Part shown: positions 3,854-53,319 of the stretch, piece after piece
Layout: every line of letters starts with the position of its first letter
Position numbering within the stretch: position 1 is the stretch's first letter
Origin: Lachnospiraceae bacterium
GTDB lineage: Bacteria > Bacillota > Clostridia > Lachnospirales > Lachnospiraceae
DNA length: 64,000 bases
Assembly: GCA_017521605.1 (NCBI GenBank)
Contig: JAFXCD010000005.1
Span: 1 to 64,000 of the forward strand
Direction of reading: 5' to 3'
Position numbers and translations under genes: made by a program
Notes under the pieces: generated by a model
The model's database searches: none
Told to the model about the DNA's origin: nothing
The model's input: only the letters and a program-made list of their open reading frames with translations

Positions 3854-5176
3854 ATGAGTTTACAGGTAGAAAAATTAGATGGCAACATGGCGAAGCTTAC
3901 TATTGAAGTGGCTGCCGAAGATTTAGAGAAGGCGATTGAAAACGCATATCAGAAGAGCAAAAACAAAATCAGCATTCCCGGTTTCCGTAAGGGTAAAGCT
4001 CCTCGTAAGATGATTGAGCAGATGTATGGTAAGGGTGTATTCCTTGAGGATGCTGCTAATGAATTAATTTCTGAAAGCTATGAAAAGGCTTTGGACGAGT
4101 GTACCGAAGATATCGTTTCATCTCCCAGAATTGATGTAATCCAGTTAGAGTCAGGTAAGCCTTTCATCTACACTGCTGAAGTTGCTTTGAAGCCTGAAGT
4201 TACCTTGGGTAAGTATAAGGGCGTAAAGATTGATAAGGTAGATATCGATGTAACAGAAGAAGAAATCGAAGCAGATATCGCGAAAGAAAGAGATAACGCA
4301 GCAAGAATTATCCCCATCACTGACAGAGCAGTTAAGGATGGTGATATGACCGTTATTGACTTCGAAGGTTTTGTAGATGGTGTTGCATTTGACGGTGGCA
4401 AGGGCGAGGATTATCCTCTGACTATCGGTTCCGGTGCATTCATTCCCGGTTTTGAAGAAGCATTAATCGGTGCGGAAATCGGTGTTGAAACAGATGTAAA
4501 TGTAACCTTCCCTGAAGATTATCAGGCAGAAGAACTGGCTGGTAAGGCTGCAGTATTTAAGTGTACCGTAAAGGAAATCAAGGAAAAAGAGCTTCCTGAA
4601 TTGGATGATGAATTTGCAAGTGAAGTATCAGAATATGATACCTTTGCTGAATATAAGGAAAGCGTAAAGGCAAAAATCGTAGATAGAAAGACCGCAGCTG
4701 CAAAGAGCGCAAAGGAAGAAGAAGTAGTGGCAGCAGTAGTTGCTGATGCTAAGATGGATATTCCTGAAGCAATGGTAGAAACTACTCAGAGACAGATGGT
4801 AGAAGAGTTTGCTCAGAGAATGCAGTCTCAGGGTATCTCTATGGAGCAGTACATGCAGTTTACCGGTATGACCCCTCAGATGCTGTTAGAGCAGATTAAG
4901 CCTCAGGCTATGAAGAGAATCCAGTCTCGTCTGGTATTGGAAGCAGTAGTAGCTGCTGAAAACATTACTGTAAGTGAAGAGGAATTCGAAGCAGAAGTAG
5001 CAAGAATGGCTGCAAGCTACATGATGGAAGCTGACAAGGTGAAGGAATTACTTGGAGAAGGCGGTAAGAAGTCAGTAATGGAAGATTTGGCAATCAACAA
5101 GGCAGTTGAATTTGTAGTTGAAAATGCTAAGGAAACAAAGGCAAAAGCAAAGAAGACAGAGGCAGATGCTGAGTAG
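3854..5176 (+). CDS. tig: Trigger factor, ribosome-associated chaperone
   Basis: This 440-residue protein is full length for the family. The N-terminal ribosome-binding domain carries the signature GFRKGKAP (residues 43-50) that contacts L23. An FKBP-type peptidyl-prolyl isomerase domain follows at about 160-245 (DGDMTVIDFEGFVDG..., IGSGAFIPGFE), then the helical cradle, ending in a Lys/Ala/Glu-rich tail. It binds nascent chains at the exit tunnel and helps early folding. The start is set by AGGAGG at about 3838-3843. It has its own promoter and a terminator, and precedes clpP and clpX as in many Firmicutes. Confidence 0.97.
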   Translation: MSLQVEKLDGNMAKLTIEVAAEDLEKAIENAYQKSKNKISIPGFRKGKAPRKMIEQMYGKGVFLEDAANELISESYEKALDECTEDIVSSPRIDVIQLESGKPFIYTAEVALKPEVTLGKYKGVKIDKVDIDVTEEEIEADIAKERDNAARIIPITDRAVKDGDMTVIDFEGFVDGVAFDGGKGEDYPLTIGSGAFIPGFEEALIGAEIGVETDVNVTFPEDYQAEELAGKAAVFKCTVKEIKEKELPELDDEFASEVSEYDTFAEYKESVKAKIVDRKTAAAKSAKEEEVVAAVVADAKMDIPEAMVETTQRQMVEEFAQRMQSQGISMEQYMQFTGMTPQMLLEQIKPQAMKRIQSRLVLEAVVAAENITVSEEEFEAEVARMAASYMMEADKVKELLGEGGKKSVMEDLAINKAVEFVVENAKETKAKAKKTEADAE

Positions 5177-37685: not shown

Positions 37686-37734
37686 AATAGATAATCAGTA
37701 TTGATTTATGATTTATAGCTGGGAGGAATATGAA

Positions 37735-40700
37735 GTGAAAAACGTAAAGGGTAAGATACTTGGAAGAAAAGTACTAAGTTTCATACTGACAGCGACCTTA
37801 GTTTTAGGGTTGATGCCGGGAAATATGATGACGGTATCGGCAGAAGGGACAGATACGGTTATAAGTGATGAACTGATAGTAGAGAGTGTTTCATCGAATG
37901 ATGTGTCTGCTACAACAGTATGCACCTGCGAGACCGATGATCCGACATATCATGCACCATTCTGTGATTTATATGAATTACCGGAAAATCCGCAGTGCTT
38001 CTGTGTGGAAAAATGTACGGAGGACAGTGTGAATGAGTGGTGTGATGTTTGTTATGGCGTAGGCGTGGAAGGCTGTAAGGGGGAAGCTCCTTTATTATCA
38101 GAAAATGTAATGGCTACCTATGCGTCTGCATCGACGCCTGTTGTGAGTGGCAAGTTTATCTATGCACACGGTACACCGATAACCATTGAAGCAGGTTCAT
38201 CAAGCAGTACTGCCTCTGTGTGGTATATGAATGGAAGTACAAAAACATATGTGGCAGAGAATGTGTCAGGCGCAGTAATATATGGTGGATGTGATGGAGA
38301 ATCTTTAGATTCTGATACAAATATTACTATGACCGGAGGTAGTGTGTCTGCTATTTACGGTGGTGGTTTAAATATTTATGATGCGTCAGAGAGTTATGTG
38401 AATAATGTTAATATTAGCATTAGTGGAGGCACAGTATCTATTGGTGTGTTTGCATCAAATTCAAATTGGGTAAAAGGTAATGTGAATATAACCGTTACAG
38501 GAGGAAATATAAGTAGAGTACATGGTTGTACAGCATCCACTCAGAGTGGTGCTGGTGGTAATCAAGAATATTGCAAGGTTAGTGGAAATGCAAGTGTAAC
38601 GATTACCGGAGGAACGGTAGGAACATTAAAAATCGGTGATGGTAATTCTCCTGTAAATGGAACTACAACCGGAATTGTTACAATTCCCGGAGTAACTCTT
38701 GAGACAAACAGTTTTACTGCTACTAATGATTACGACAATTTGTATATAAGTGATGGAACGACATTTGTGATAAAGGGTGATGTCACATTGCCTGAAAACA
38801 CCAAACTTATTATTCCGTCCGGAGAAACTTTTACCCTTAACGGCTCTACTACAATAGAGGCTCCTTATGGTATTGAAAATAATGGAACATTAAATATTGA
38901 GTCGGGATGTACTGATACATACAACATTGAAAACAATGGTACTTTGAATATCTCTACTCTTTATACAAATTCAGAGGGGATTGTAAATAACGGTACTATA
39001 AATCTTACCAAACCTATTCTTGGCGACAAACCAACAGGAAACGGAACGATTAACAGAAATACAGCATATATATCCGGTATTTCATCTGTTAGCAGTATTT
39101 CAGTAAAAATGGATGATGCCGATTATGCTTTAGCAAACGGATATTATGAAACAGCAGATGGAAAGCTTTATCTCTGGCTCCCGTCGGGATATGCAGTTGT
39201 TTTTGTTGACGGAAGTGTTTATTGTGGAACGGCAAATGAAGGAACAGCAGTAGAATTACTTGCCTATAAAGCAGTTTCAGATATAGAAACTGTATCATCA
39301 CGCATTCCTGTAGGTATCAACTATGATCTGTCAACTTATGCAGTAACAAACAACGACGCAAGCTATAAGACGATTGAATGGTCTGTAGTAAATGCAAATG
39401 GAACAGGTGCTACGATTACAGATAATGCTATTAAGGCAACCGCTGCAGGAACAGCAACTATCAGAGCAACGGTTAATAATGGTCAGGCTTATGGAACAGC
39501 TTATACCAAAGAGTATGATGTCACATTTTATGTAACGGATGATATTGATACAAGTTTGGGAAGTATCACTATTTCCAAGAAGGATGATACTACGATTACT
39601 GTAGCAGGAACAGGAATACCTAACGGAAGCAAGGATTATCCGATTGATGAAAGTATTAGAATTATCGGTAGCACAACAACAAGCAATACAATTACAGTTA
39701 AAAGTGGTGCTACAGCGAATGTGATACTTAATGGTGTAGAAATTGATTGTTCTAATACGGGAATTACGCCAATTATGGTAGAATCAGGTGCCACATTGAA
39801 TCTGACACTGATAGATGATAATGTTCTGACGGCTTGCACTCTCGATGATGGGACGGATGCACAAAAAACAGCTGCTCTTGGTGTGCCGGTGGGAGCTGAG
39901 CTTGTTATTACGGAAAACTCTACGGGTACTCTTACTGCAAATGGCGCAAAGGGCGGCGGAGCTGGAATCGGTGGTGGTTATAACAGTGGTGCCGGAACAA
40001 TTACCATTAATGGTGGAACCATAAATGCTACTTCAGACAATGGAGCCGGAATCGGTGGTGGTTATAATAAAAGTAACGATAAAGTGACCAGAAACGGTGG
40101 AACAGTTACCATCAACGGTGGAACCGTAAATGCTACTTCAGACAATGGAGCCGGAATCGGTGGTGGTTATTATGGATTCGGCGGAACGGTTATTATCAAA
40201 GGTGGAACTGTAAATGCTACTTCAACCACAGGAGCCGGAATTGGTGCTGCTAGTCGTTCTCAAAATGCGGATAATTACATAACAGTTACTATCGAAGGTG
40301 GAACCGTAAATGCTTCTTCAATCGAAGGAGCCGGAATCGGTGGAAGTGACGAGTATTATAGCGTAACAGTTACTATCAACGGTGGAACCATAAATGCTAC
40401 TTCAACCGGAGGAGCCGGAATTGGTAAAGGTTTCAATGGAATGGGACATCTAACAGTTACTATCACGGGTGGTAATTTTAACTATTCCTCTGTTACTGCA
40501 CCTACAAATGGCACTAGTGCAGTGGCTCGTTATACTTGCAAATTCATAGGCAACAGCGAGGATATGGCAGGAAAAACAGTAACTGCTATTACATTAGAAA
40601 ATGGCGGTACTTATGGAATTAAGGATGTAGTTACCTTTGACGGAGGCAGTGAAAATGAGGGCTACTTTAACTGCTATCTCCCTGCAGGCAGCAAAATAAC

Positions 40701-43700
40701 CTCAATTACTGTAGGCGGTACAACTTATAACTGCCGTGCTGAGGATGGAACTTGCTATGTTGAACATACTTGGGAAGATGCTACCTGCACCATAGCAGAG
40801 CATTGTATCGTATGTGATAAGACACAAGGCGAAACAATTTCTCATAATTATATAGATGGTGTCTGCACGATTTGCGGTATGGATAGATACGGAACATTCC
40901 ATATTAAGACAGCAGAACAGCTTGTAGCTTTCGCACAGTCTGTAAATGCAGGAAACAAAGACGCAGACGCAGTATTAGACGCAGATATTGATATGACAGG
41001 TGTGGATTGGACGCCGATTTGTCAGACAGTATCATATCATTCATCCGAAGCAACCGACACAGGATACAGCGGAACATTTGATGGTAAAGGTCATACTATT
41101 TCAAATCTTACCGTAACAGGCATACCGGGTGGTGCATATTCGTATGGACTTTTTGGTACGGTAAGCGGTACAGTTAAAAACCTCGGTATGGTGAATTACA
41201 CCTATACTATGGGTAGTGCACCTGATGCAAGAGCCGGCTCTATTGCAGGTCAGGTATTAACAGGCGGTACTATCACAAACTGTTATTCCGTAGAACATAC
41301 CGTTACAACTAATGGCAATATTGCAGGTGGTATTGCAGGATGTAATTACGGCGGTACAATCAGTAACTGCTATGCACTTAATGGTAGTGTTTCAGGACAT
41401 GATACCCGCTGGGGCGGTGTAGTTGGTGACTGTCAGAAAGATGATGATACATCTGGTGGTACTGTTTCAAATTGCTATACCGATGATACACGAGTAGTAA
41501 GTACGCAGAGTGGAAATGCAACCATTACAAGTTGTGCATTAAAGGACGATGATGCCTTTGAAAGCGGTGAAATTGCATATCTGTTGAACGGTTCTTCAAG
41601 CGGAAATGTGACTTGGTATCAGACACTTGGAACAGATGCCTATCCTGTGCTTGATAGCGAACATGGTAAGGTATATTCTGTATGCAAGTGCAATGGAATG
41701 ACACCAGCTGGATACAGCAATGTAAATGAGAATGAACCGCACACAGATGTAAATCCTGTTGATAATGTTTGTGATGTATGTAGTGCAAATTTACATACAC
41801 ATGAATGGGAATATACTGTAAATGGTGATACAATCACAGCGGTTTGTAATGTTAACGGTTGCCCTGTAGTTGGAGAAGAAAAAACCATCATTATTTCTGC
41901 ATCCGATAAGAACTATGACGGCACAGCGGTAGTGGCAACTGTTGAAAATAATGTTGACACAACGGACTACAGTTCATTAATCGTATATAAGGATAACGAT
42001 GGGGATGTTGTTGATGAAGCAATAAATGCAGGAACATATACTGCAAACCTTACGGTTGGAGGCAAAACGGCAACAGTTGAGTTTACGATTGCTAAAGTGA
42101 CATCGGATATAGGAACTGTTTCAGCGTCAAATATGGAGAATACACTAGATGTATCTCAGGTAGTATTGAGTCGCTCGAATGAAACAGTGCCTGGTACACT
42201 TTCTTTGGCAGAAGGAACCACATTGCAGTATGGTATACATGATTATACTTATGTATTTACACCAAATGATGACACAAATTATGAGACTGTCACGGGAACA
42301 GTATCTATTACAATTTTAGACACTAATAAACCAGCTGCAACATATAAAGTTGGTACAGATGAATGGAAGCAGTTTATAAATACATTTACTTTTGGGCATT
42401 TCTGTAAAGACTATACAACAGTAGATATTACTTACAGTGATGAAGGAAGTGGGGTTGCAGATAAGCAATACTATATTTCGGATGTAGAAATTACAAACAC
42501 AGAAAATATTCATTGGAGTGAATACACAGATACCCTGAACATAAATGCAACAGGTAAATACTATATTTATGTCAGAGTAACAGACAACTATGGAAATGTG
42601 GTAATCCAAAACAGTGAAGGTATTGTGGTTTATGAGGAAAGTGTTATTACTCCGACTTCATTTTCATGTGAATATGGAGATGAAAATGCCCTTAACGTGA
42701 ATATCTCTACAAACGGAAATACCTTTGCAAATCTTACAGATGGTAGTGGAAATGAAATAGCTACGGATAATTATTCAATAAATGGAAGTACACTTACCAT
42801 AAAAGGAGAGTATCTTTCTGACCTTGATGTTGGAGAATATACCTATAAGATTTGTATGAATCCGCAGGGGGTTGAAAACACAGAAGTAACGCTTGCATAT
42901 AGTTTTGTTGTAAATGTTACAGCAAAGGAATTAACTGTGACAGGAGCAACTGCAACAAGCAGAGCTTATATTGCAAATGATGAAACGGTTGATATTACAG
43001 GCATTACATTAAGTGGTATTCAGGGAACGGATGATGTTTCTGTGGAAATTACCGAGTTAAAAGGAACACTCAGTAGTGCAAATGCAGGTACTTATACTTC
43101 TGTAACATTGCCTACGCTTACATTAACAGGTGATGATGCAGAAAATTATGTATTAGTTCAGCCGACAAGTGCAGTTGCGACAAATGTGACCATTAACAAA
43201 TTGAATCCTACAATTACAGTCGGCGCAACAGAGTACTATAAGACCTTTGGAGACGCAGATTTTACATTGGAAATAACAGATGATAATCCGGAGGCAAATG
43301 TTACTTACTCATCAAATGACGAAAATGTAGTGACAGTATCAAATGGCACGGTTACCATTAAGGGTGCTGGTTCAGCAACTATTACTGTATCTATGGGCGC
43401 TAGTACGAATTATAATGCTGCGGTAGATAAAACAATTACAGTAAATGTTGCAAGAGCAGCATACAGCGTAGATACAATTAACAAGAGTTATTTATATGCA
43501 AGAAGCAATGCTGATTCAATTAACTTAGCTGAATTGTTACCTGAAGATTGCGGAACCGTAAATTATGCTTCTGTAACATCTAATGGACCATTGAGTTTTA
43601 TAAGTGAACCAAAGGTTACGAATGGTATATTAGCATACACACTTGAAAGTGGTGCTGCTGATGATACAGGAATCATAATTGTAGATGTAGAAACACAGAA

Positions 43701-45966
43701 TTATGAAGATATTACCATTACAGTAAATGTGACATTGATAGACCAGATACCTGTAAATGTGGATGGTGAAGTAGAACTCAATAGTAATGTTCTTACTTAT
43801 GGAGAAACTTTATCCGGACTGACATTCAAATCAGTAGATTTTGTGGATAATGCAGGAAATGAAGTGGCAGGTACTCTGGCATGGAAAGAGCCTTCAGCTA
43901 CACCTAATGCAGGAACTACAAGTGCAACATGGGTATTTACCCCGGATAATGAGGAATATGCTGTCAAAGAAGGCAGTGTGGCTATCGTAGTAAAGAAGGC
44001 AACTCCTGTGGTAGTGGGACCTACTGTGGCAGAGAGAGTTTACAATCCTTCTGCAGTACTGGCAGACAGTGAGTTGTCAGGTGGCAGCGCAACAGGCGTG
44101 GATGGCAATGACTTAAACGGAAGCTGGAGCTGGAAAGTATCCGGTACCGTACCGGTAGTAAATAACAGCGGATATGAGGCAGTATTTACACCGGCGGATA
44201 TAAACAATTATGAAACAGTAACCGAAACGATTCGTGTTAAGGTAAATCAGGCTACACCGGTGATTGCACAGGTAAACGGCACCACCATTACTTATGGGGA
44301 CAGCCTCGCGGCTTCTACAGTAAGCGGTCAGGCTAAGCATAGTGCTTCTGTGGATATGGCAGTAGCAGGAAGCTTTTCATGGAAGGATACCACAGTGAAA
44401 CCTGCTGTGGCTGATTCGGATACCACAGCATTTGAGGTGGTATTTACCCCTGCGGACAGCGTGAATTATAAGGCAGTGGAAACCACAGCAAAGATTACAG
44501 TGAACAAGGCACCGGTGGCACCTAATAAGCCGGAGAGTTCTTTGAACGTTCCTTACACTACCGATACTGTGGGCGAGACAGATTTGCCTGCAGGCTGGAC
44601 ATGGCAGAATGGTGAAACTGCTCTTGAGGTAGGTGTAGTATGCAATGCAGTGGCGGTTTATACCGGTACGGATGCAGGCAACTACGAGACCGAAAGTGTG
44701 ACGGTAGCCATTACCAGAGCAGCATGTGTACATGACGGAGAGACAGAGCTTCGTGATGAAGCGGAAGAAAGCTGTACAGAGGATGGTTATACCGGTGATA
44801 CCTATTGTCTGATTTGTGAAGAAAAGCTGGCAACAGGTGAAGCGATTCCGGCAACCGGACATAAGGATGCAGATAAAGACCATGATTGTGATTATGGCTG
44901 TGACAAAGCATTTGGAACCCATGAAGCAGCAAGCGGAAAGCATACTTGTGAGTATTGTGGTAAAGCAGTTACAAGCTGTAAGGATGATAACCATGACCAT
45001 GTATGTGATATCTGTGGTGAGGAACTGGAACATAGTTTCTTAACTGAGTGGAAGTATGACGAAGATGGTCACTGGCATGTATGCTCTTGCGGTTTAAAGA
45101 AAGATGAAGCAACACATAGCTTTACAAGTCAGGTGACTAAGCAGCCTACTGTACATGCAGAAGGGGAAAGAACCTATACCTGTAGCGAGTGTGAGTACAG
45201 TTATAAGGAACCTATTGAGAAGGTAAAGGAGACTCCGACACCTGCACCTAACACAACTCCTATACCGATAGACCCCGGCAAACCATTTATTCAGGATGAT
45301 ACCGGTAAGATTGGATGGGAAGTAATCAGAGGTGAGACTGGCAAGGCTAAGGAAGGTGAAACCATTATCGTTGATATGAACGGAGCTACATCCGTGCCGG
45401 GAGCTGTATTCGATGATATTAAGGGGAAGAATATTACCATTACTTTGGATATGGGAACCGGTGTGAGCTGGACTATCAATGGTAAAGACATCACAGCAAG
45501 TAAGGTAAATGATATTAACTTTGAAGTAAAAGTTGGTACCAAGGATAATCCGATAAATACCATTCCGGTAGAGGTAATCAATAAGATAACCGGAGAAAGA
45601 TACTTTGTAAATATCAGCCTGACACATGATGGTGAGCTTGGATTAAAGGCAATTCTAAATATTAATCTGGATAAGAAGAACGCAGGATTATTTGCAAATC
45701 TGTTCTATTACAATGAGAAGTACGAAAGAATGCAGTTTATCGGGGCGGATGATATTGACGAGGTAGGTATGGCACATTTGGTATTTACGCATGCATCAGA
45801 GTATTCTATCGTGATTGATAAGGATATTTTGAATAAGTGGAACTCTCATGAACAAGCTCCTGATACAGGTGATGACGGCAATATATGGTTGATGATATTA
45901 TTGATGAGTCTGTCTTTAAGTATTGGCGCAGGAGTTCTGGTGATAAGAAGGAAAGCCGCTCATTAA
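37735..45966 (+). CDS. Giant multidomain cell-surface protein with C-terminal sorting signal
   Basis: A 2743-residue secreted protein. The start is GTG 37735 with GGGAGGA 7 bp upstream; a signal peptide follows (GRKVLSFILTATLVLGLMPG, cleavage near VSAEG). Then come a Cys-rich patch (nt 37919-38070), beta-helix-like Gly/Thr repeats (38300-38700), six GAGIGGG-type repeats (39955-40485), a Cys patch (40755-40890), GLUG-like repeats (GGTITNCYSVEH..., 41090-41520), MBG/YDG-type and Ig-like modules (41880-44700), His/Cys-rich modules (44720-45220), a Pro/Thr linker, a final domain, and the anchor APDTGDDG + hydrophobic helix + RRKAAH, a variant xPxTG sortase signal. It is probably an adhesin or matrix protein. 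The LytTR-box promoter at 37525 lies upstream and a terminator downstream. Confidence 0.9.
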   Translation: MKNVKGKILGRKVLSFILTATLVLGLMPGNMMTVSAEGTDTVISDELIVESVSSNDVSATTVCTCETDDPTYHAPFCDLYELPENPQCFCVEKCTEDSVNEWCDVCYGVGVEGCKGEAPLLSENVMATYASASTPVVSGKFIYAHGTPITIEAGSSSSTASVWYMNGSTKTYVAENVSGAVIYGGCDGESLDSDTNITMTGGSVSAIYGGGLNIYDASESYVNNVNISISGGTVSIGVFASNSNWVKGNVNITVTGGNISRVHGCTASTQSGAGGNQEYCKVSGNASVTITGGTVGTLKIGDGNSPVNGTTTGIVTIPGVTLETNSFTATNDYDNLYISDGTTFVIKGDVTLPENTKLIIPSGETFTLNGSTTIEAPYGIENNGTLNIESGCTDTYNIENNGTLNISTLYTNSEGIVNNGTINLTKPILGDKPTGNGTINRNTAYISGISSVSSISVKMDDADYALANGYYETADGKLYLWLPSGYAVVFVDGSVYCGTANEGTAVELLAYKAVSDIETVSSRIPVGINYDLSTYAVTNNDASYKTIEWSVVNANGTGATITDNAIKATAAGTATIRATVNNGQAYGTAYTKEYDVTFYVTDDIDTSLGSITISKKDDTTITVAGTGIPNGSKDYPIDESIRIIGSTTTSNTITVKSGATANVILNGVEIDCSNTGITPIMVESGATLNLTLIDDNVLTACTLDDGTDAQKTAALGVPVGAELVITENSTGTLTANGAKGGGAGIGGGYNSGAGTITINGGTINATSDNGAGIGGGYNKSNDKVTRNGGTVTINGGTVNATSDNGAGIGGGYYGFGGTVIIKGGTVNATSTTGAGIGAASRSQNADNYITVTIEGGTVNASSIEGAGIGGSDEYYSVTVTINGGTINATSTGGAGIGKGFNGMGHLTVTITGGNFNYSSVTAPTNGTSAVARYTCKFIGNSEDMAGKTVTAITLENGGTYGIKDVVTFDGGSENEGYFNCYLPAGSKITSITVGGTTYNCRAEDGTCYVEHTWEDATCTIAEHCIVCDKTQGETISHNYIDGVCTICGMDRYGTFHIKTAEQLVAFAQSVNAGNKDADAVLDADIDMTGVDWTPICQTVSYHSSEATDTGYSGTFDGKGHTISNLTVTGIPGGAYSYGLFGTVSGTVKNLGMVNYTYTMGSAPDARAGSIAGQVLTGGTITNCYSVEHTVTTNGNIAGGIAGCNYGGTISNCYALNGSVSGHDTRWGGVVGDCQKDDDTSGGTVSNCYTDDTRVVSTQSGNATITSCALKDDDAFESGEIAYLLNGSSSGNVTWYQTLGTDAYPVLDSEHGKVYSVCKCNGMTPAGYSNVNENEPHTDVNPVDNVCDVCSANLHTHEWEYTVNGDTITAVCNVNGCPVVGEEKTIIISASDKNYDGTAVVATVENNVDTTDYSSLIVYKDNDGDVVDEAINAGTYTANLTVGGKTATVEFTIAKVTSDIGTVSASNMENTLDVSQVVLSRSNETVPGTLSLAEGTTLQYGIHDYTYVFTPNDDTNYETVTGTVSITILDTNKPAATYKVGTDEWKQFINTFTFGHFCKDYTTVDITYSDEGSGVADKQYYISDVEITNTENIHWSEYTDTLNINATGKYYIYVRVTDNYGNVVIQNSEGIVVYEESVITPTSFSCEYGDENALNVNISTNGNTFANLTDGSGNEIATDNYSINGSTLTIKGEYLSDLDVGEYTYKICMNPQGVENTEVTLAYSFVVNVTAKELTVTGATATSRAYIANDETVDITGITLSGIQGTDDVSVEITELKGTLSSANAGTYTSVTLPTLTLTGDDAENYVLVQPTSAVATNVTINKLNPTITVGATEYYKTFGDADFTLEITDDNPEANVTYSSNDENVVTVSNGTVTIKGAGSATITVSMGASTNYNAAVDKTITVNVARAAYSVDTINKSYLYARSNADSINLAELLPEDCGTVNYASVTSNGPLSFISEPKVTNGILAYTLESGAADDTGIIIVDVETQNYEDITITVNVTLIDQIPVNVDGEVELNSNVLTYGETLSGLTFKSVDFVDNAGNEVAGTLAWKEPSATPNAGTTSATWVFTPDNEEYAVKEGSVAIVVKKATPVVVGPTVAERVYNPSAVLADSELSGGSATGVDGNDLNGSWSWKVSGTVPVVNNSGYEAVFTPADINNYETVTETIRVKVNQATPVIAQVNGTTITYGDSLAASTVSGQAKHSASVDMAVAGSFSWKDTTVKPAVADSDTTAFEVVFTPADSVNYKAVETTAKITVNKAPVAPNKPESSLNVPYTTDTVGETDLPAGWTWQNGETALEVGVVCNAVAVYTGTDAGNYETESVTVAITRAACVHDGETELRDEAEESCTEDGYTGDTYCLICEEKLATGEAIPATGHKDADKDHDCDYGCDKAFGTHEAASGKHTCEYCGKAVTSCKDDNHDHVCDICGEELEHSFLTEWKYDEDGHWHVCSCGLKKDEATHSFTSQVTKQPTVHAEGERTYTCSECEYSYKEPIEKVKETPTPAPNTTPIPIDPGKPFIQDDTGKIGWEVIRGETGKAKEGETIIVDMNGATSVPGAVFDDIKGKNITITLDMGTGVSWTINGKDITASKVNDINFEVKVGTKDNPINTIPVEVINKITGERYFVNISLTHDGELGLKAILNINLDKKNAGLFANLFYYNEKYERMQFIGADDIDEVGMAHLVFTHASEYSIVIDKDILNKWNSHEQAPDTGDDGNIWLMILLMSLSLSIGAGVLVIRRKAAH
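39955..40485 (+). repeat. Six coding tandem repeats in the surface protein
   Basis: Units contain GAGIGGGY (or GAGIGAAS, GAGIGGSD, GAGIGKGF) and GGTVNATS at ~29-39-residue spacing. The DNA is also alike (GGAGCCGGAATCGGTGGTGG). This pattern suits stacked beta-solenoid coils and may vary in number between strains. Confidence 0.85.
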
Positions 45967-50016: not shown

Positions 50017-50045
50017 TTGACAAATCCTGGAAGCAATGTTATGTT
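50017..50045 (+). promoter_or_regulatory. Promoter driving the Mn riboswitch transcript
   Basis: TTGACA (50017-50022), 17-bp spacer, TATGTT (50040-50045), ending 17 bp before the aptamer. Confidence 0.65.
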
Positions 50046-50062
50046 AATAAAAATAAAATTCC

Positions 50063-50146
50063 CATGAGGGAGTAGCAAGCGTGAAAACGTAGCAAGTCAA
50101 CATACTGACCTTTTGGTCTGGCTTGTTTTAAATTGCGAGACTCATG
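50063..50146 (+). promoter_or_regulatory. yybP-ykoY type manganese riboswitch aptamer
   Basis: P1 is closed by CATGAG (50063-50068) and CTCATG (50141-50146). Next to it are the conserved GGGAGTAGC (50068-50076) and TTGCGAGAC (50133-50141). Inside, GCAAGTCAACATAC pairs with TGGCTTGTT to give the hairpin that presents the second metal-binding loop. These blocks agree with the yybP-ykoY consensus, a sensor of Mn2+. The 3' strand of P1 can instead pair with 50161-50172 (AGACTCATG with CATGAAGTCT), giving a switch. Confidence 0.85.
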
Positions 50147-50195
50147 TATAGCTGAAACTATGCATGAAGTCTGTACATATGAAATGTGAGGTTAG

Positions 50196-50239
50196 GACTC
50201 AGGTATAGTTTAAAAGCTATACCTGGGTCTTTTGTTTTT
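50196..50239 (+). terminator. Riboswitch-controlled terminator
   Basis: A 13-bp stem (GACTCAGGTATAG, 50196-50208, with 50217-50229; one G-U pair), 8-nt loop, then TTTTGTTTTT. From here to the next ATG at 50386, small hairpins are possible (TATGGC/GCCATA near 50275) but there is no gene. Confidence 0.85.
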
Positions 50240-50385
50240 GATTCGGAGCCATGCAGACTGATTGTATCAATCTATATGGCAAGAAGCCATACATGAGTAA
50301 AAGGAAAGCCTCGAAAAGGCGATTTTACGAATGTGGCTTCAAATCAAACAGTAGCTTTCAAAATACAAGTCAGGAGGAAAGAAAG

Positions 50386-51084
50386 ATGTTTGTTACTTTG
50401 AAAAATGTAACCAAGAAGTATGGTGAGGGAGAGAGCCTGGTGTATGCTTTAGACCATGCAAGTCTGGAAATTGAGAAAGGAGAGATTTGTGTGATTTTAG
50501 GTCCTTCTGGTTCCGGTAAGTCCACCATGTTAAATATGCTGGGAGGACTTGACCATTTGGATGAGGGAGAAATTATCGTGGGTGATAGAAACATTTCCGG
50601 ATATCGTAGTAAGAAACTTACAGAATACCGTAAAGAAGATGTGGGATTTGTTTTTCAGTTCTACAATCTGATACCGGATTTGACCGTGGAAGAGAATATT
50701 CAGGTGGTATCCGATATTTCAGAGAATCCATTGGATATCAAAGAGGTATTGGAAGCCATGGGTATGGAAAAGTATCGATACCGGTTTCCAAGAGAGCTTT
50801 CCGGTGGTCAGCAACAGCGTGTAGCCATTGCCAGAGCCCTTATTAAGAATCCCAAGTTACTTCTGTGTGATGAGTTGACAGGAGCCTTAGATACCAAATC
50901 TTCCAAAAGCGTCTTGGAGTTCATAGAAAAAATAAATCAGCTTTATCAAACAACTACCGTAATTATTACTCACAATGAAGCTATTGCACAGATGGCAGAC
51001 AGGGTGATTTATATCAAAGACGGTAAAGTACAGGAAAACAGAATAAATGAGCAGAAGAAATCTGCTACAGAACTGGAACTGTAA
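50386..51084 (+). CDS. ABC transporter ATP-binding protein (MacB/LolD type)
   Basis: A 232-residue ATPase. Walker A GPSGSGKS (39-46), Q-loop VFQFYNLIP (~89-97), signature LSGGQQQR (138-145), Walker B LLLCDE (158-163), and the H-loop in TVIITHNEAI. The sequence belongs to the group that partners FtsX-like permeases. The start is ATG 50386, with CAGGAGG upstream; upstream in-frame codons back to 50251 lie in the riboswitch leader. The permease follows 12 bp later. Placement behind an Mn riboswitch suggests induction by manganese. Confidence 0.93.
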   Translation: MFVTLKNVTKKYGEGESLVYALDHASLEIEKGEICVILGPSGSGKSTMLNMLGGLDHLDEGEIIVGDRNISGYRSKKLTEYRKEDVGFVFQFYNLIPDLTVEENIQVVSDISENPLDIKEVLEAMGMEKYRYRFPRELSGGQQQRVAIARALIKNPKLLLCDELTGALDTKSSKSVLEFIEKINQLYQTTTVIITHNEAIAQMADRVIYIKDGKVQENRINEQKKSATELEL

Positions 51085-51096
51085 GGGGGAATGATT

Positions 51097-53319
51097 ATGA
51101 AGCTGAACAAGAGATATTCAAGAAGCATTAAAAGCAATCTGTCATTCTATATTTCAACAACCATATTGACGATAATGACCTTGGTGCTGTTCTTCATCAT
51201 GAATATTGGAGGAGAAGCTATTTGGGAATTTGGTGATCGTTTTTTTGCCACACAAAATTTAGAGGATGCTAATTTTACAACATATCTGCCTATTTCAGAA
51301 GCAGATCAAACAGAACTGGAGCAGGAGTTTTGTGTACATCTGGAGCCGCAATATTACAATAATATAGAAACCAATGGCGTGACTGCCAGAGTGTTTCGTA
51401 AAACTCATGAAATCAATCTTTACAGTATAACCGAGGGAAGAGATATCGTAAAGAATGATGAAGTGGTTCTTTCAGAAGGTTATGGGGTTTTTAATAAGAT
51501 ATCTTTGGGGGATTCCATAGCTATAGGGGAAAAAGAATATACAGTAACCGGCTTTTTTCAAAGACCGGATTATTTATATATGCTGCAAAATGAAGGGGAT
51601 GCCTATAAGAATGTAACCACCTTCTTTCTAGCCTATGTAACGGATGAAGAGTTTGAGGAGATTGGCAGTGATAATTGTCTTTATATGGTGAGGTATGAAG
51701 AGGATAATAGTAAAGAATTTCGTAAAGCAGTAAATGAAAAATACTATATGAGCAGCTATTTATCCGCCCGGGAAAACATGCGTATTGATATGGTAAAAAT
51801 GCAGGCAGAGATGATGGTTTATATGTCCTACATCATTCTGGCCATCATGCCTTTGGTAGTGGTGGTGTTGGTAAGTATTGTCATTAATCGAAAGGTTAAA
51901 GCGGAGCAGAAGCTGATAGGAACTTTGACTGCGTTAGGATACAGAAAGAGTAGGCTGATGATGCATTATGCCGGATTTTCCATGATTCCCGGGATACTGG
52001 GTGGAGGTTTGGCAGTGCTTTTCAGCAAGCTGTTCGCACAGAGCTTTGGTGAAATTTGTTTGTTGGATTATGAGCCTATGCGGATAGAATGTCATTTGAA
52101 TCCCTGGGGGGCCGTGTTGAGCATTGTGGTGCCCACCGGCATGTATGTACTGGCGGCTATGCATTCCGTAAATAAGCTGTTAAAAAGGGATACCGTACTA
52201 CTGTTAAATGGTAATGCGGAACAAGGAGAGAAAAGTTATAGAAATCTTTTAAGAAAGCAAAAAATGTCCTTCCGTATTAAATATGCGGTTCGTTCTCTAA
52301 TAGGCAATCCTGGCAGAAGTTTTGTGGTCTTTTTAGGGATTTTTCTGGGAAGCTTTATCGCATTATTGGGCTTTGGACTTTTGGATACCATGGAAAATAC
52401 CAAGATAAACATGGTGGATGAAATGGGAAGCTTCGAGTATCAGTATGTATTAAAGGAACGGATAGAAGGAAGAGAATATGGTGGTGAGCCTGTAATTATG
52501 TTTACCATGGAAGATGTATCCGGTGAGCAGTTTAGCATCATCGGAACAGAGGAGTCCAATCCCTATTTGGAACTTAGAGACGTAGAGGGTAACCGGGTTA
52601 ATGTAGAGGAAGGATACTATATCACCAGTGTTATGGCCATGCTTCAGGATGTACAGGTCGGAGATAAATTGATGGTTTGTAATCCACTGACATTGGTGGA
52701 AACAGAAATTACAGTGACTGGTATTCTGGATAATGATATGCAAAATGCATTATTCAGTAGCAGAGAACGTGTAGCGGATATTCTTGGCATAGAGGAATCT
52801 ATTAGCAATGTGGTTATGAGTGACGTGGCTCTTGAGATACCGGAAGAGAAGGTTATGGAGACAATCAAGAAAAGTGACGCCAAAGAGCAGTTTCAGAATA
52901 TGTCAAATCAGATGAATGTAATGATTTACTTTATCATCGGGATGGGAGCGGTAATCTGTGTGACGTCTATATATGTGGCGGTTAATATGTTGGTATCAGA
53001 AAATCGATCCAATATCTCCATGTTGAAGGTCTTAGGATATGATGATAAAAACATTAATCAGATTGTACTGCGAGTAAATCATATTCTGGTTCCCTTGGGC
53101 TTTTTAGTAAGTATCCCTTTGGTATTTACTTCCACAAACTTTTTCATGGTTTTCCTGGCGAAGTTTATTGGTGTTTTGCCTAAGGCTTATGTGGCACCAA
53201 AAAGCTTTTTGTATACAGCAGTATTAATTTGCAGCAGCTACTTTGGCTCTTTGTTTTTACTGAGACGTAAGGTGTCTAAGGTAGATATGGTAGAGAGCCT
53301 GAAAGGAAACAGAGAATAG
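51097..53319 (+). CDS. FtsX-like ABC transporter permease
   Basis: A 740-residue protein with a first helix (~20-42), an extracellular MacB-like domain (~43-230), three helices (~240-370), a further helix (~400-420), a second extracellular part (~425-600) and three C-terminal helices (~610-730). This is the duplicated FtsX layout of exporters and mechanotransmission systems. The start is ATG 51097, 7 bp after AGGGGGA; an ATG at 51091 is too close to it. It forms a transporter with the preceding ATPase. The substrate is unknown, but it is not a known Mn exporter family. Confidence 0.92.
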   Translation: MKLNKRYSRSIKSNLSFYISTTILTIMTLVLFFIMNIGGEAIWEFGDRFFATQNLEDANFTTYLPISEADQTELEQEFCVHLEPQYYNNIETNGVTARVFRKTHEINLYSITEGRDIVKNDEVVLSEGYGVFNKISLGDSIAIGEKEYTVTGFFQRPDYLYMLQNEGDAYKNVTTFFLAYVTDEEFEEIGSDNCLYMVRYEEDNSKEFRKAVNEKYYMSSYLSARENMRIDMVKMQAEMMVYMSYIILAIMPLVVVVLVSIVINRKVKAEQKLIGTLTALGYRKSRLMMHYAGFSMIPGILGGGLAVLFSKLFAQSFGEICLLDYEPMRIECHLNPWGAVLSIVVPTGMYVLAAMHSVNKLLKRDTVLLLNGNAEQGEKSYRNLLRKQKMSFRIKYAVRSLIGNPGRSFVVFLGIFLGSFIALLGFGLLDTMENTKINMVDEMGSFEYQYVLKERIEGREYGGEPVIMFTMEDVSGEQFSIIGTEESNPYLELRDVEGNRVNVEEGYYITSVMAMLQDVQVGDKLMVCNPLTLVETEITVTGILDNDMQNALFSSRERVADILGIEESISNVVMSDVALEIPEEKVMETIKKSDAKEQFQNMSNQMNVMIYFIIGMGAVICVTSIYVAVNMLVSENRSNISMLKVLGYDDKNINQIVLRVNHILVPLGFLVSIPLVFTSTNFFMVFLAKFIGVLPKAYVAPKSFLYTAVLICSSYFGSLFLLRRKVSKVDMVESLKGNRE

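What the first reader, a model, noticed from the sequence alone, without database searches (positions are those of the whole stretch)
50017..53319. Manganese riboswitch ahead of a MacB/FtsX-type ABC transporter
The yybP-ykoY aptamer, alternative hairpin and terminator are clear, and the only genes downstream are an ABC ATPase and an FtsX-like permease. Known targets of this class are mostly Mn exporters (MntP, TMEM165-like proteins, P-type ATPases, TerC). Either this transporter has a role in Mn stress, such as exporting a peptide or lipid affected by Mn, or the riboswitch was captured from another gene.
Basis: partly seen in the sequence, partly recalled or inferred. Interest (0 to 1): 0.8.

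Follow-up and report, generated by a model that had tools for sequence, protein, structure and literature searches.

The report
Manganese switch controlling an ABC transporter
In a group of gut bacteria, an RNA switch of the manganese-sensing kind, which normally sits in front of metal pumps, repeatedly sits in front of an ABC transporter of a type not known to handle metals, so this transporter probably belongs to the cell's response to too much manganese.

Summary
Window 50063-50146 is a yybP-ykoY (Mn2+) aptamer with an intact metal-binding core, followed by a switching hairpin and a terminator. Rfam RF00080 sees it only below its cut-off. My own model (R1) finds 75 sites in 64 of 138 genomes of the genus: 60 precede MntP, CaCA antiporters or P-type ATPases, 13 an ABC ATPase (FtsX-type permease behind it in 12; contig end in one). 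The pairing is not a recent capture: all 13 named loci with window-type permeases (60-79% identity) and readable upstream DNA carry the switch, and it recurs before a second permease clade, a third remote permease, and in one genus of another family of the class. I saw no classical exporter between switch and ABC genes; MntP lies elsewhere in the same genome with its own divergent leader. Against: relatives at 52% identity or less often lack the switch, three having TetR-like genes; folding alone favours the terminator even with the aptamer formed; a B. subtilis relative of this transporter type (yknX mutant) showed no change in cell Mn. Best reading: a Mn2+-induced type VII ABC system used in Mn overload. 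Its cargo is unproven.

The parts
50017..50045 (+). promoter-like TTGACA-17-TATGTT with TG before the -10
   Evidence: 1 found, 1.6 expected by chance; TTGAC boxes lie at about this distance in most, not all, of the 29 leaders printed
50063..50146 (+). Mn2+ (yybP-ykoY) aptamer without a P4 hairpin: P1 50063-50068/50141-50146, L1 from 50069, P2, P3 with L3 50096-50106; Mn-binding A48 equivalent at 50102
50139..50171 (+). alternative hairpin A:B (competes with P1), -14.3 kcal/mol
50155..50211 (+). possible antiterminator pairing B:C (50155-50171 with 50196-50211), -16.8 kcal/mol as a duplex
50195..50241 (+). intrinsic terminator C:D (stem 50195-50230; -23.1 kcal/mol for 50195-50233) and T run
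50373..50377 (+). Shine-Dalgarno GGAGG, 8 nt before the ATG at 50386
   Evidence: sequence
50386..51084 (+). ABC ATPase, 232 aa, MacB/LolD/BceA group
   Evidence: the mechanical ORF starts at 50251, but relatives have MFITLKN at this place
51091..53319 (+). FtsX-type permease with two FtsX stretches, 742 aa
53423..54444 (+). azlC and azlD, possibly on the same transcript in this genome; of the window-type loci whose downstream genes were printed, only L093 (G070) shows the same order

Best explanation
This is a Mn2+-induced two-gene ABC transporter. Shown by sequence: a yybP-ykoY aptamer whose P1 strand overlaps a hairpin; with P1 open the hairpin can form and the terminator downstream is left free (OFF), with P1 held the second hairpin strand is free to pair with the first half of the terminator (ON). 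Inferred from the established mechanism of this class: Mn2+ docks L1 on L3, stabilises P1 and so lets RNA polymerase through; since the terminator is the more stable hairpin, this must work during transcription, before the last terminator strand is made. Inferred from repeated linkage: the ATPase/FtsX pair is a dedicated part of the Mn-overload response. Inferred from its family (type VII, mechanotransmission ABC systems such as MacB, LolCDE, BceAB; recalled): the ATPase works the permease to drive a cargo outward from the membrane or its outer face. My commitment is that it lowers Mn toxicity by export, either of Mn2+ in some bound form or of a molecule that Mn damages; the cargo itself is not shown.
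For: Core letters of the Mn site kept. R1 sites in the genus lead into 36 MntP, 18 CaCA antiporter, 6 P-type ATPase, 13 ABC, 1 unknown, 1 contig end: 75 of 75 accounted for. Other lineages: a second permease clade and the remote L170, class-level genus g402 (4 of 28 loci). HlyD adaptor between switch and ABC genes in L206. Both alternative folds are largely kept over 26 chosen leaders. ABC-driven Mn export has a precedent of another ABC type: B. subtilis YknUV (passages of PMC10448178).
Against: I know of no type VII ABC system that moves metal ions; in PMC10448178 disruption of yknX (the gene that I know as part of the FtsX-type YknWXYZ system) left Mn2+ unchanged. No residue set typical of a Mn site stood out: TM3 His292 is shared with homologues lacking the switch, and the other His/acidic candidates are confined to the window's own clade and its nearest relative. 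MntP is found in 130 of 138 genomes, in 12 of the 13 ABC-linked ones (in G069 only as weak hits; none in G003), so this is rarely the sole exporter. Homologues at 52, 34 and 32% identity (G051, G102, G052) have no R1 match, and G052, G073 and G011 have a gene that looks TetR-like just upstream (by eye); of 28 loci from the first relatives search only 2 matched R1. With P1 forced, the predicted fold still forms the terminator, not B:C, and strand A could also pair with terminator strand D (-17.8 kcal/mol). P1 and A:B show no pair with changes on both sides. One review passage calls this class OFF switches. No expression or phenotype data.
Confidence: 0.5

Rival explanations
1. The switch is a true Mn sensor, but the transporter handles envelope damage or a peptide or lipid and never touches Mn; Mn overload is only the cue.
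For: Family membership: ATPases of solved structure among the best matches include BceA, YtrE, LolD, MacB; homologues beside TetR-like genes; some operons add an HlyD adaptor (L206) or a 665-aa protein with only sub-cut-off, coiled-coil-type Pfam matches (L192); yknX disruption left cell Mn unchanged in B. subtilis (passage of PMC10448178).
Against: In the genus census 60 of the 62 non-ABC sites precede cation transporter families; the other two are one unknown protein and one contig end.
Confidence: 0.33
2. The riboswitch was captured recently or by chance and has no physiological tie to the transporter.
For: Below about 55% identity the linkage is patchy; in G070 (L093/L270) the aptamer has changed L3 letters TCACCATCTC, perhaps drifting.
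Against: Linkage kept in every readable window-type relative at or above 60% identity, with differing genes downstream, with the switching strands conserved, and in several permease lineages.
Confidence: 0.08
3. The aptamer is a variant that senses another metal or ligand.
For: It falls below the Rfam cut-off and lacks a P4 hairpin; the same kind of leader precedes MgtE in G175.
Against: L3 letters equal those of the X. oryzae Mn riboswitch and the metal-binding A is invariant in 29 of 29 rows; the same aptamer type precedes MntP and P-type ATPases in sister species; a three-way-junction member in Streptococcus is described, reported to respond to Mn2+ and also Ca2+ (passage of PMC9495176).
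Confidence: 0.08

Closest known systems
yybP-ykoY (Manganese) riboswitch, RF00080
   Same: L1 GGGAGUAGC, L3 GUCAACAUACU, P3, P1 switch helix, termination platform
   Different: no P4 hairpin in the fold; none of 138 genomes of the genus passes the Rfam cut-off; target is an ABC/FtsX pair
Streptococcus mgtA Mn/Ca leader (three-way junction; seen as a passage of PMC9495176)
   Same: three-way-junction version of the same class
   Different: controls a P-type ATPase
MacAB / YknXYZ type ABC exporters
   Same: MacB-group ATPase, FtsX permease; one relative (L206) has an HlyD adaptor before the ABC genes
   Different: permease with two FtsX stretches, no adaptor in the window, control by a Mn riboswitch
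B. subtilis YknUV (seen as passages of PMC10448178)
   Same: ABC exporter tied to Mn2+: mutants have raised Mn2+
   Different: regulated by AhrC, not by a riboswitch; as far as I recall YknUV is of the ABCB-like exporter type, not FtsX type
BceAB / LolCDE type VII ABC systems
   Same: ATPase similarity, FtsX domains
   Different: permease profile finds no solved structure at E 0.1; substrate unknown

Membership tests
yybP-ykoY Mn riboswitch | Conserved L1 and L3 letters incl. the Mn-binding adenosine | tested here: met
   the A at 50102 is invariant in 29 of 29 aptamers (which were selected by a pattern that includes it)
yybP-ykoY Mn riboswitch | Match to RF00080 at gathering score 45 | tested here: not met
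   (21.3 bits); 0 of 138 congeners pass; 18 sub-threshold rows listed, 10 of them at 21 bits or more. This is a score threshold of a library model, not a physical feature
yybP-ykoY Mn riboswitch | P1 switch helix, P2, P3 paired | tested here: met
   93.3% of cells paired (shuffles 91.6); 7 pairs with changes on both sides (shuffles 3.4; 1 of 500 as high); weakest helix P2 with 76.6%; P1 has no change on both sides
yybP-ykoY Mn riboswitch | P4 (four-way junction) | tested here: not met
   no hairpin between P3 and the 3' strand of P1 in the fold; a three-way member is described
yybP-ykoY Mn riboswitch | Binds Mn2+ and switches transcription | not testable with these tools
   needs in vitro assay
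type VII (MacB/FtsX) ABC transporter | ATPase of the MacB/LolD group | tested here: met
   no curated NCBIfam cut-off is reached by the best 25 of 194 matches shown
type VII (MacB/FtsX) ABC transporter | FtsX permease domain | tested here: met
   FtsX 82.6 bits (cut-off 25.5), two stretches
type VII (MacB/FtsX) ABC transporter | MacB-like extracytoplasmic core domain | tested here: inconclusive
   MacB_PCD 20.6 bits, below its cut-off 27
known Mn exporter families (MntP, CaCA, P-type ATPase, TMEM165, TerC, CDF) | homology of the regulated genes | tested here: not met
   none of these Pfam families among the matches of ATPase and permease at E 0.001

The most novel reading that the evidence does not exclude
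A MacB/FtsX-type (type VII) ABC transporter is a further class of bacterial manganese efflux system, driven by ATP through mechanotransmission and switched on by a Mn2+ riboswitch, beside CDF, MntP, UPF0016/TMEM165, P-type ATPases, TerC and the YknUV-type ABC exporter.
Probability: 0.22. Interest if true: 0.78.

Novelty: new variant of a known kind. Interest (0 to 1): 0.53.

Why it matters
[quoted passage not shown] a 2023 paper adds the ABC exporter YknUV in B. subtilis (passages of PMC10448178). None is of the FtsX type. A riboswitch is a direct pointer to function, so the recurrent pairing makes the role of a group of otherwise unassigned ABC/FtsX transporters testable. Practical point: RF00080 at its cut-off reports none in the 138 genomes in which R1 finds 75 sites, so annotation by that cut-off would miss them.

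Tried and rejected
Recent deletion of a classical exporter between switch and ABC genes: looked for in the ABC-linked loci that I read, none seen; two have an extra gene there, an HlyD-type adaptor (L206) and a 665-aa protein with only weak Pfam matches (L192).

Replacement of MntP by the ABC pair: not supported; MntP hits are in 130 of 138 genomes and in 12 of the 13 ABC-linked ones (only weak ones in G069, none in G003, 85% complete), and in the window's genome mntP has its own divergent leader.

A metal-site signature in the permease: compared 11 window-type, 6 second-clade and other permeases; nothing specific. Permease against solved structures by sequence: nothing at E 0.1. PADLOC: matches only for the ATPase, none for the permease. 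Searches (a protein aligned to itself; two truncated leaders) were of no use.

Blaming the low Rfam score on the missing P4: dropped, because the alignments show that RF00080 pairs P3 and a short P2 but ends in a long, loosely aligned 3' part.

Papers: in the listings of searches (capped lists: e.g. 25 of 7,016, 30 of 37) I saw no title or abstract start describing this riboswitch ahead of an ABC/FtsX transporter, nor in the passages opened. Dambach 2015, Price 2015 and Martin 2019 are not held; RegPrecise and Rfam gene contexts were not searched. So novelty of the pairing is not proven.
Full report
Observation. The leader at 50017-50385 was read. Folded alone, 50050-50245 gives -71.4 kcal/mol, z -7.7 against 200 shuffles. 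Rfam finds nothing at its cut-offs in the window. The permissive scan of 411 bases aligns 50091-50127 to RF00080 positions 47-85 with 21.3 bits (cut-off 45), E 5e-4; a bglG-type element also scores below its cut-off there (27 of 80 bits), over the hairpin and terminator. The two other conserved elements of the class, GGGAGUAGC before P2 and GCGAGAC before the 3' strand of P1, sit at the right places (names of the elements recalled; the first is visible in the RF00080 consensus). A passage of PMC6754395 gives the L3 letters of the X. oryzae riboswitch as ACA48U49ACU52, with A45 and A46 named; window 50099-50106 is AACATACT, so by my alignment the Mn-binding adenosine is 50102.

Independent recurrence. 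The pattern GGAGTAGCN{8,38}GTCAACAN{15,45}GCGAGA gave 29 sites in 27 of 138 genomes of the genus; the reversed control matched once. The 29 aptamers were aligned (A1). The structure that I wrote down for them has 93.3% of cells paired, against 91.6% in shuffles and 20.8 to 45.0% when slid, with 7 pairs changed on both sides against 3.4. The model R1 finds 75 sites in 64 of 138 genomes at E 0.01; RF00080 over the same genomes passes its cut-off in 0 of 138 and has 18 weak rows in 17.

What the switch controls. All 75 genus sites: 36 MntP, 18 CaCA antiporter (two with a TMEM165/UPF0016-like gene behind), 6 P-type ATPase, 13 ABC, 1 unknown 161-aa protein (second site of the window's own genome), 1 at a contig end. 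In 12 of the 13 ABC sites an FtsX-type permease follows; in L109 (G095) the contig ends after the ATPase. Eight of the 13 are of the window type (with L109 counted by its ATPase), five of a second type. Labels come from blastp to seed proteins taken from these loci, from reading the first residues, and for 19 of the MntP sites from neighbouring PF02659 hits; the names of the CaCA, P-type and TMEM165 seeds rest on my recognition of the sequences, not on a Pfam call. In a draw of 397 genomes of the family, 169 have a site at E 0.001. I classified 109 sites of other genera: the 29 fetched with the search and the next 80 in rank, out of a longer, capped list: 69 MntP, 14 P-type, 12 CaCA, 2 TMEM165-like, 8 ABC+FtsX directly, 2 ABC+FtsX behind another gene (L206 HlyD, PF13437; L192 a 665-aa protein with only sub-cut-off, coiled-coil-type Pfam matches), 1 MgtE (L161), 1 contig end. 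In a draw of 391 genomes of the class, 92 have a site at E 1e-4; of 28 loci read, two of them repeats from the family draw, 4 lead into ABC genes, all in one genus (g402) of another family; the permease start is seen in three of these, the fourth (L278) shows only the ATPase in the stretch held.

How fixed the pairing is. An alignment of seven window-type permeases (A3) found 14 named loci: identity 60-79%, among them Mordavella massiliensis An582 and an Oscillospiraceae MAG. In the genus, 7 of 7 full-length permeases at 69% or more carry it; a 99-aa fragment in G061 starts at a contig end. Below that the link is patchy: G051 (52%), G102 (34%), G052 (32%), G004 (23%), G073 (26%) and G011 (25%) have no R1 match, with a gene that looks TetR-like just upstream in G052, G073 and G011; G003, G002 and G069 (25-26%) have it; G022 is cut by a contig end, and G086 was not examined. 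Of 28 loci from the first relatives search, most of them remote permeases, 2 match R1. The tree of 30 permeases that I chose puts switch-linked proteins in three places: the window clade, a second clade (mixed with two unlinked ones) and L170 beside the unlinked L017; at least 5 changes of label (L005, the G022 copy whose upstream is not readable, was counted there as unlinked, which adds to the changes).

Switch mechanism. Strand A (50139-50151) can pair with B (50158-50171), -14.3 kcal/mol; C (50195-50210) with D (50215-50230), the terminator, -23.1; B with C, -16.8 as a duplex; A with D, -17.8, a pairing that would act against this scheme; P1 uses 50141-50146 of strand A. I aligned 26 leaders chosen for sharing this layout, 13 of them before ABC genes (A5; diverged leaders such as L269 and L271 were left out). 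Over the 25 distinct rows, A:B plus C:D has 93.5% of cells paired with 7 pairs changed on both sides (3.5 in shuffles), all in the terminator; P1 plus B:C has 90.1% with 5 (2.4 in shuffles), all in B:C, where two of 15 pairs fail in most rows. So A:B and P1 rest on conservation, not covariation. The unforced fold of the full leader is the terminated state, and with P1 forced the terminator still forms; antitermination must therefore be kinetic. That Mn2+ stabilises P1 and gives read-through is reported for the class (passages of PMC6754395 and PMC11087558) and inferred here. A review passage calls these OFF switches (PMC11477304); the strand layout here fits ON better.

Transporter. Among solved structures the ATPase is closest to MJ0796, then BceA, with YtrE, LolD and MacB among the best. 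The permease has two FtsX stretches and a sub-threshold MacB core domain. Comparison of linked and unlinked permeases shows no metal-site signature. So the case for Mn rests on regulation alone. From the literature: in B. subtilis disruption of yknU or yknV, an ABC exporter, raised Mn2+, while disruption of yknX did not change it (passages of PMC10448178). The first shows that ABC-linked Mn export exists; the second speaks against the FtsX-type system of that species, as I recall yknX to belong to.

Verdict. The leader is a Mn riboswitch of a type that Rfam scores below its cut-off; the pairing with an ABC/FtsX transporter is real, recurrent and conserved in its close relatives; the likeliest meaning is a Mn-overload export system, with cargo unknown. 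I saw no paper describing it in the listings and passages, but the founding papers were not readable here.

Noticed in passing
G000:C116:61504-61604 (-); L126:3906-4388 (-): Second strong Mn-type riboswitch of the same genome (113.5 bits), ahead of a 161-aa membrane-like protein with no Pfam match; the only such target among the 75 genus sites.
   Followed up: partly
L127:3926-4037 (-), ahead of mntP in G000:C16: Divergent Mn-type leader (37.1 bits with R1) with L3 letters TCGACATACA and a short terminator; by my alignment the Mn-binding A is kept but A45 is G.
   Followed up: partly
L240-L255: Sixteen weakly scoring mntP leaders of the genus look like a separate class, in many of which an extra hairpin (perhaps P4) seems to follow P3 (by eye).
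   Followed up: partly
L161 (G175): Mn-type riboswitch directly ahead of an MgtE divalent cation transporter with MgtE_N and CBS domains.
   Followed up: partly
L206 (G393) and L192 (G486): Mn-type riboswitch ahead of HlyD adaptor + ABC + permease, and ahead of a 665-aa protein + ABC + permease.
   Followed up: partly
L093 / L270 (G070): The relative with the same downstream genes as the window (azlCD and a YvcK-like gene) has an altered aptamer loop TCACCATCTC.
   Followed up: no
G905:C20:2874-2989 and 4460-4567; G791:C1:486152-486261 and 488701-488811: Two Mn-type riboswitches about 1.6 and 2.5 kb apart on the same strand, so neighbouring genes may each have their own switch.
   Followed up: no
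L260 (Mordavella massiliensis An582): The riboswitch-ABC cassette lies between genes that look like serine recombinases (by eye), hinting at a mobile element.
   Followed up: no
window 37708-45966: A 2752-aa open frame upstream, followed by a LytTR response regulator gene and a sigma-70 family (ECF-like) gene.
   Followed up: no
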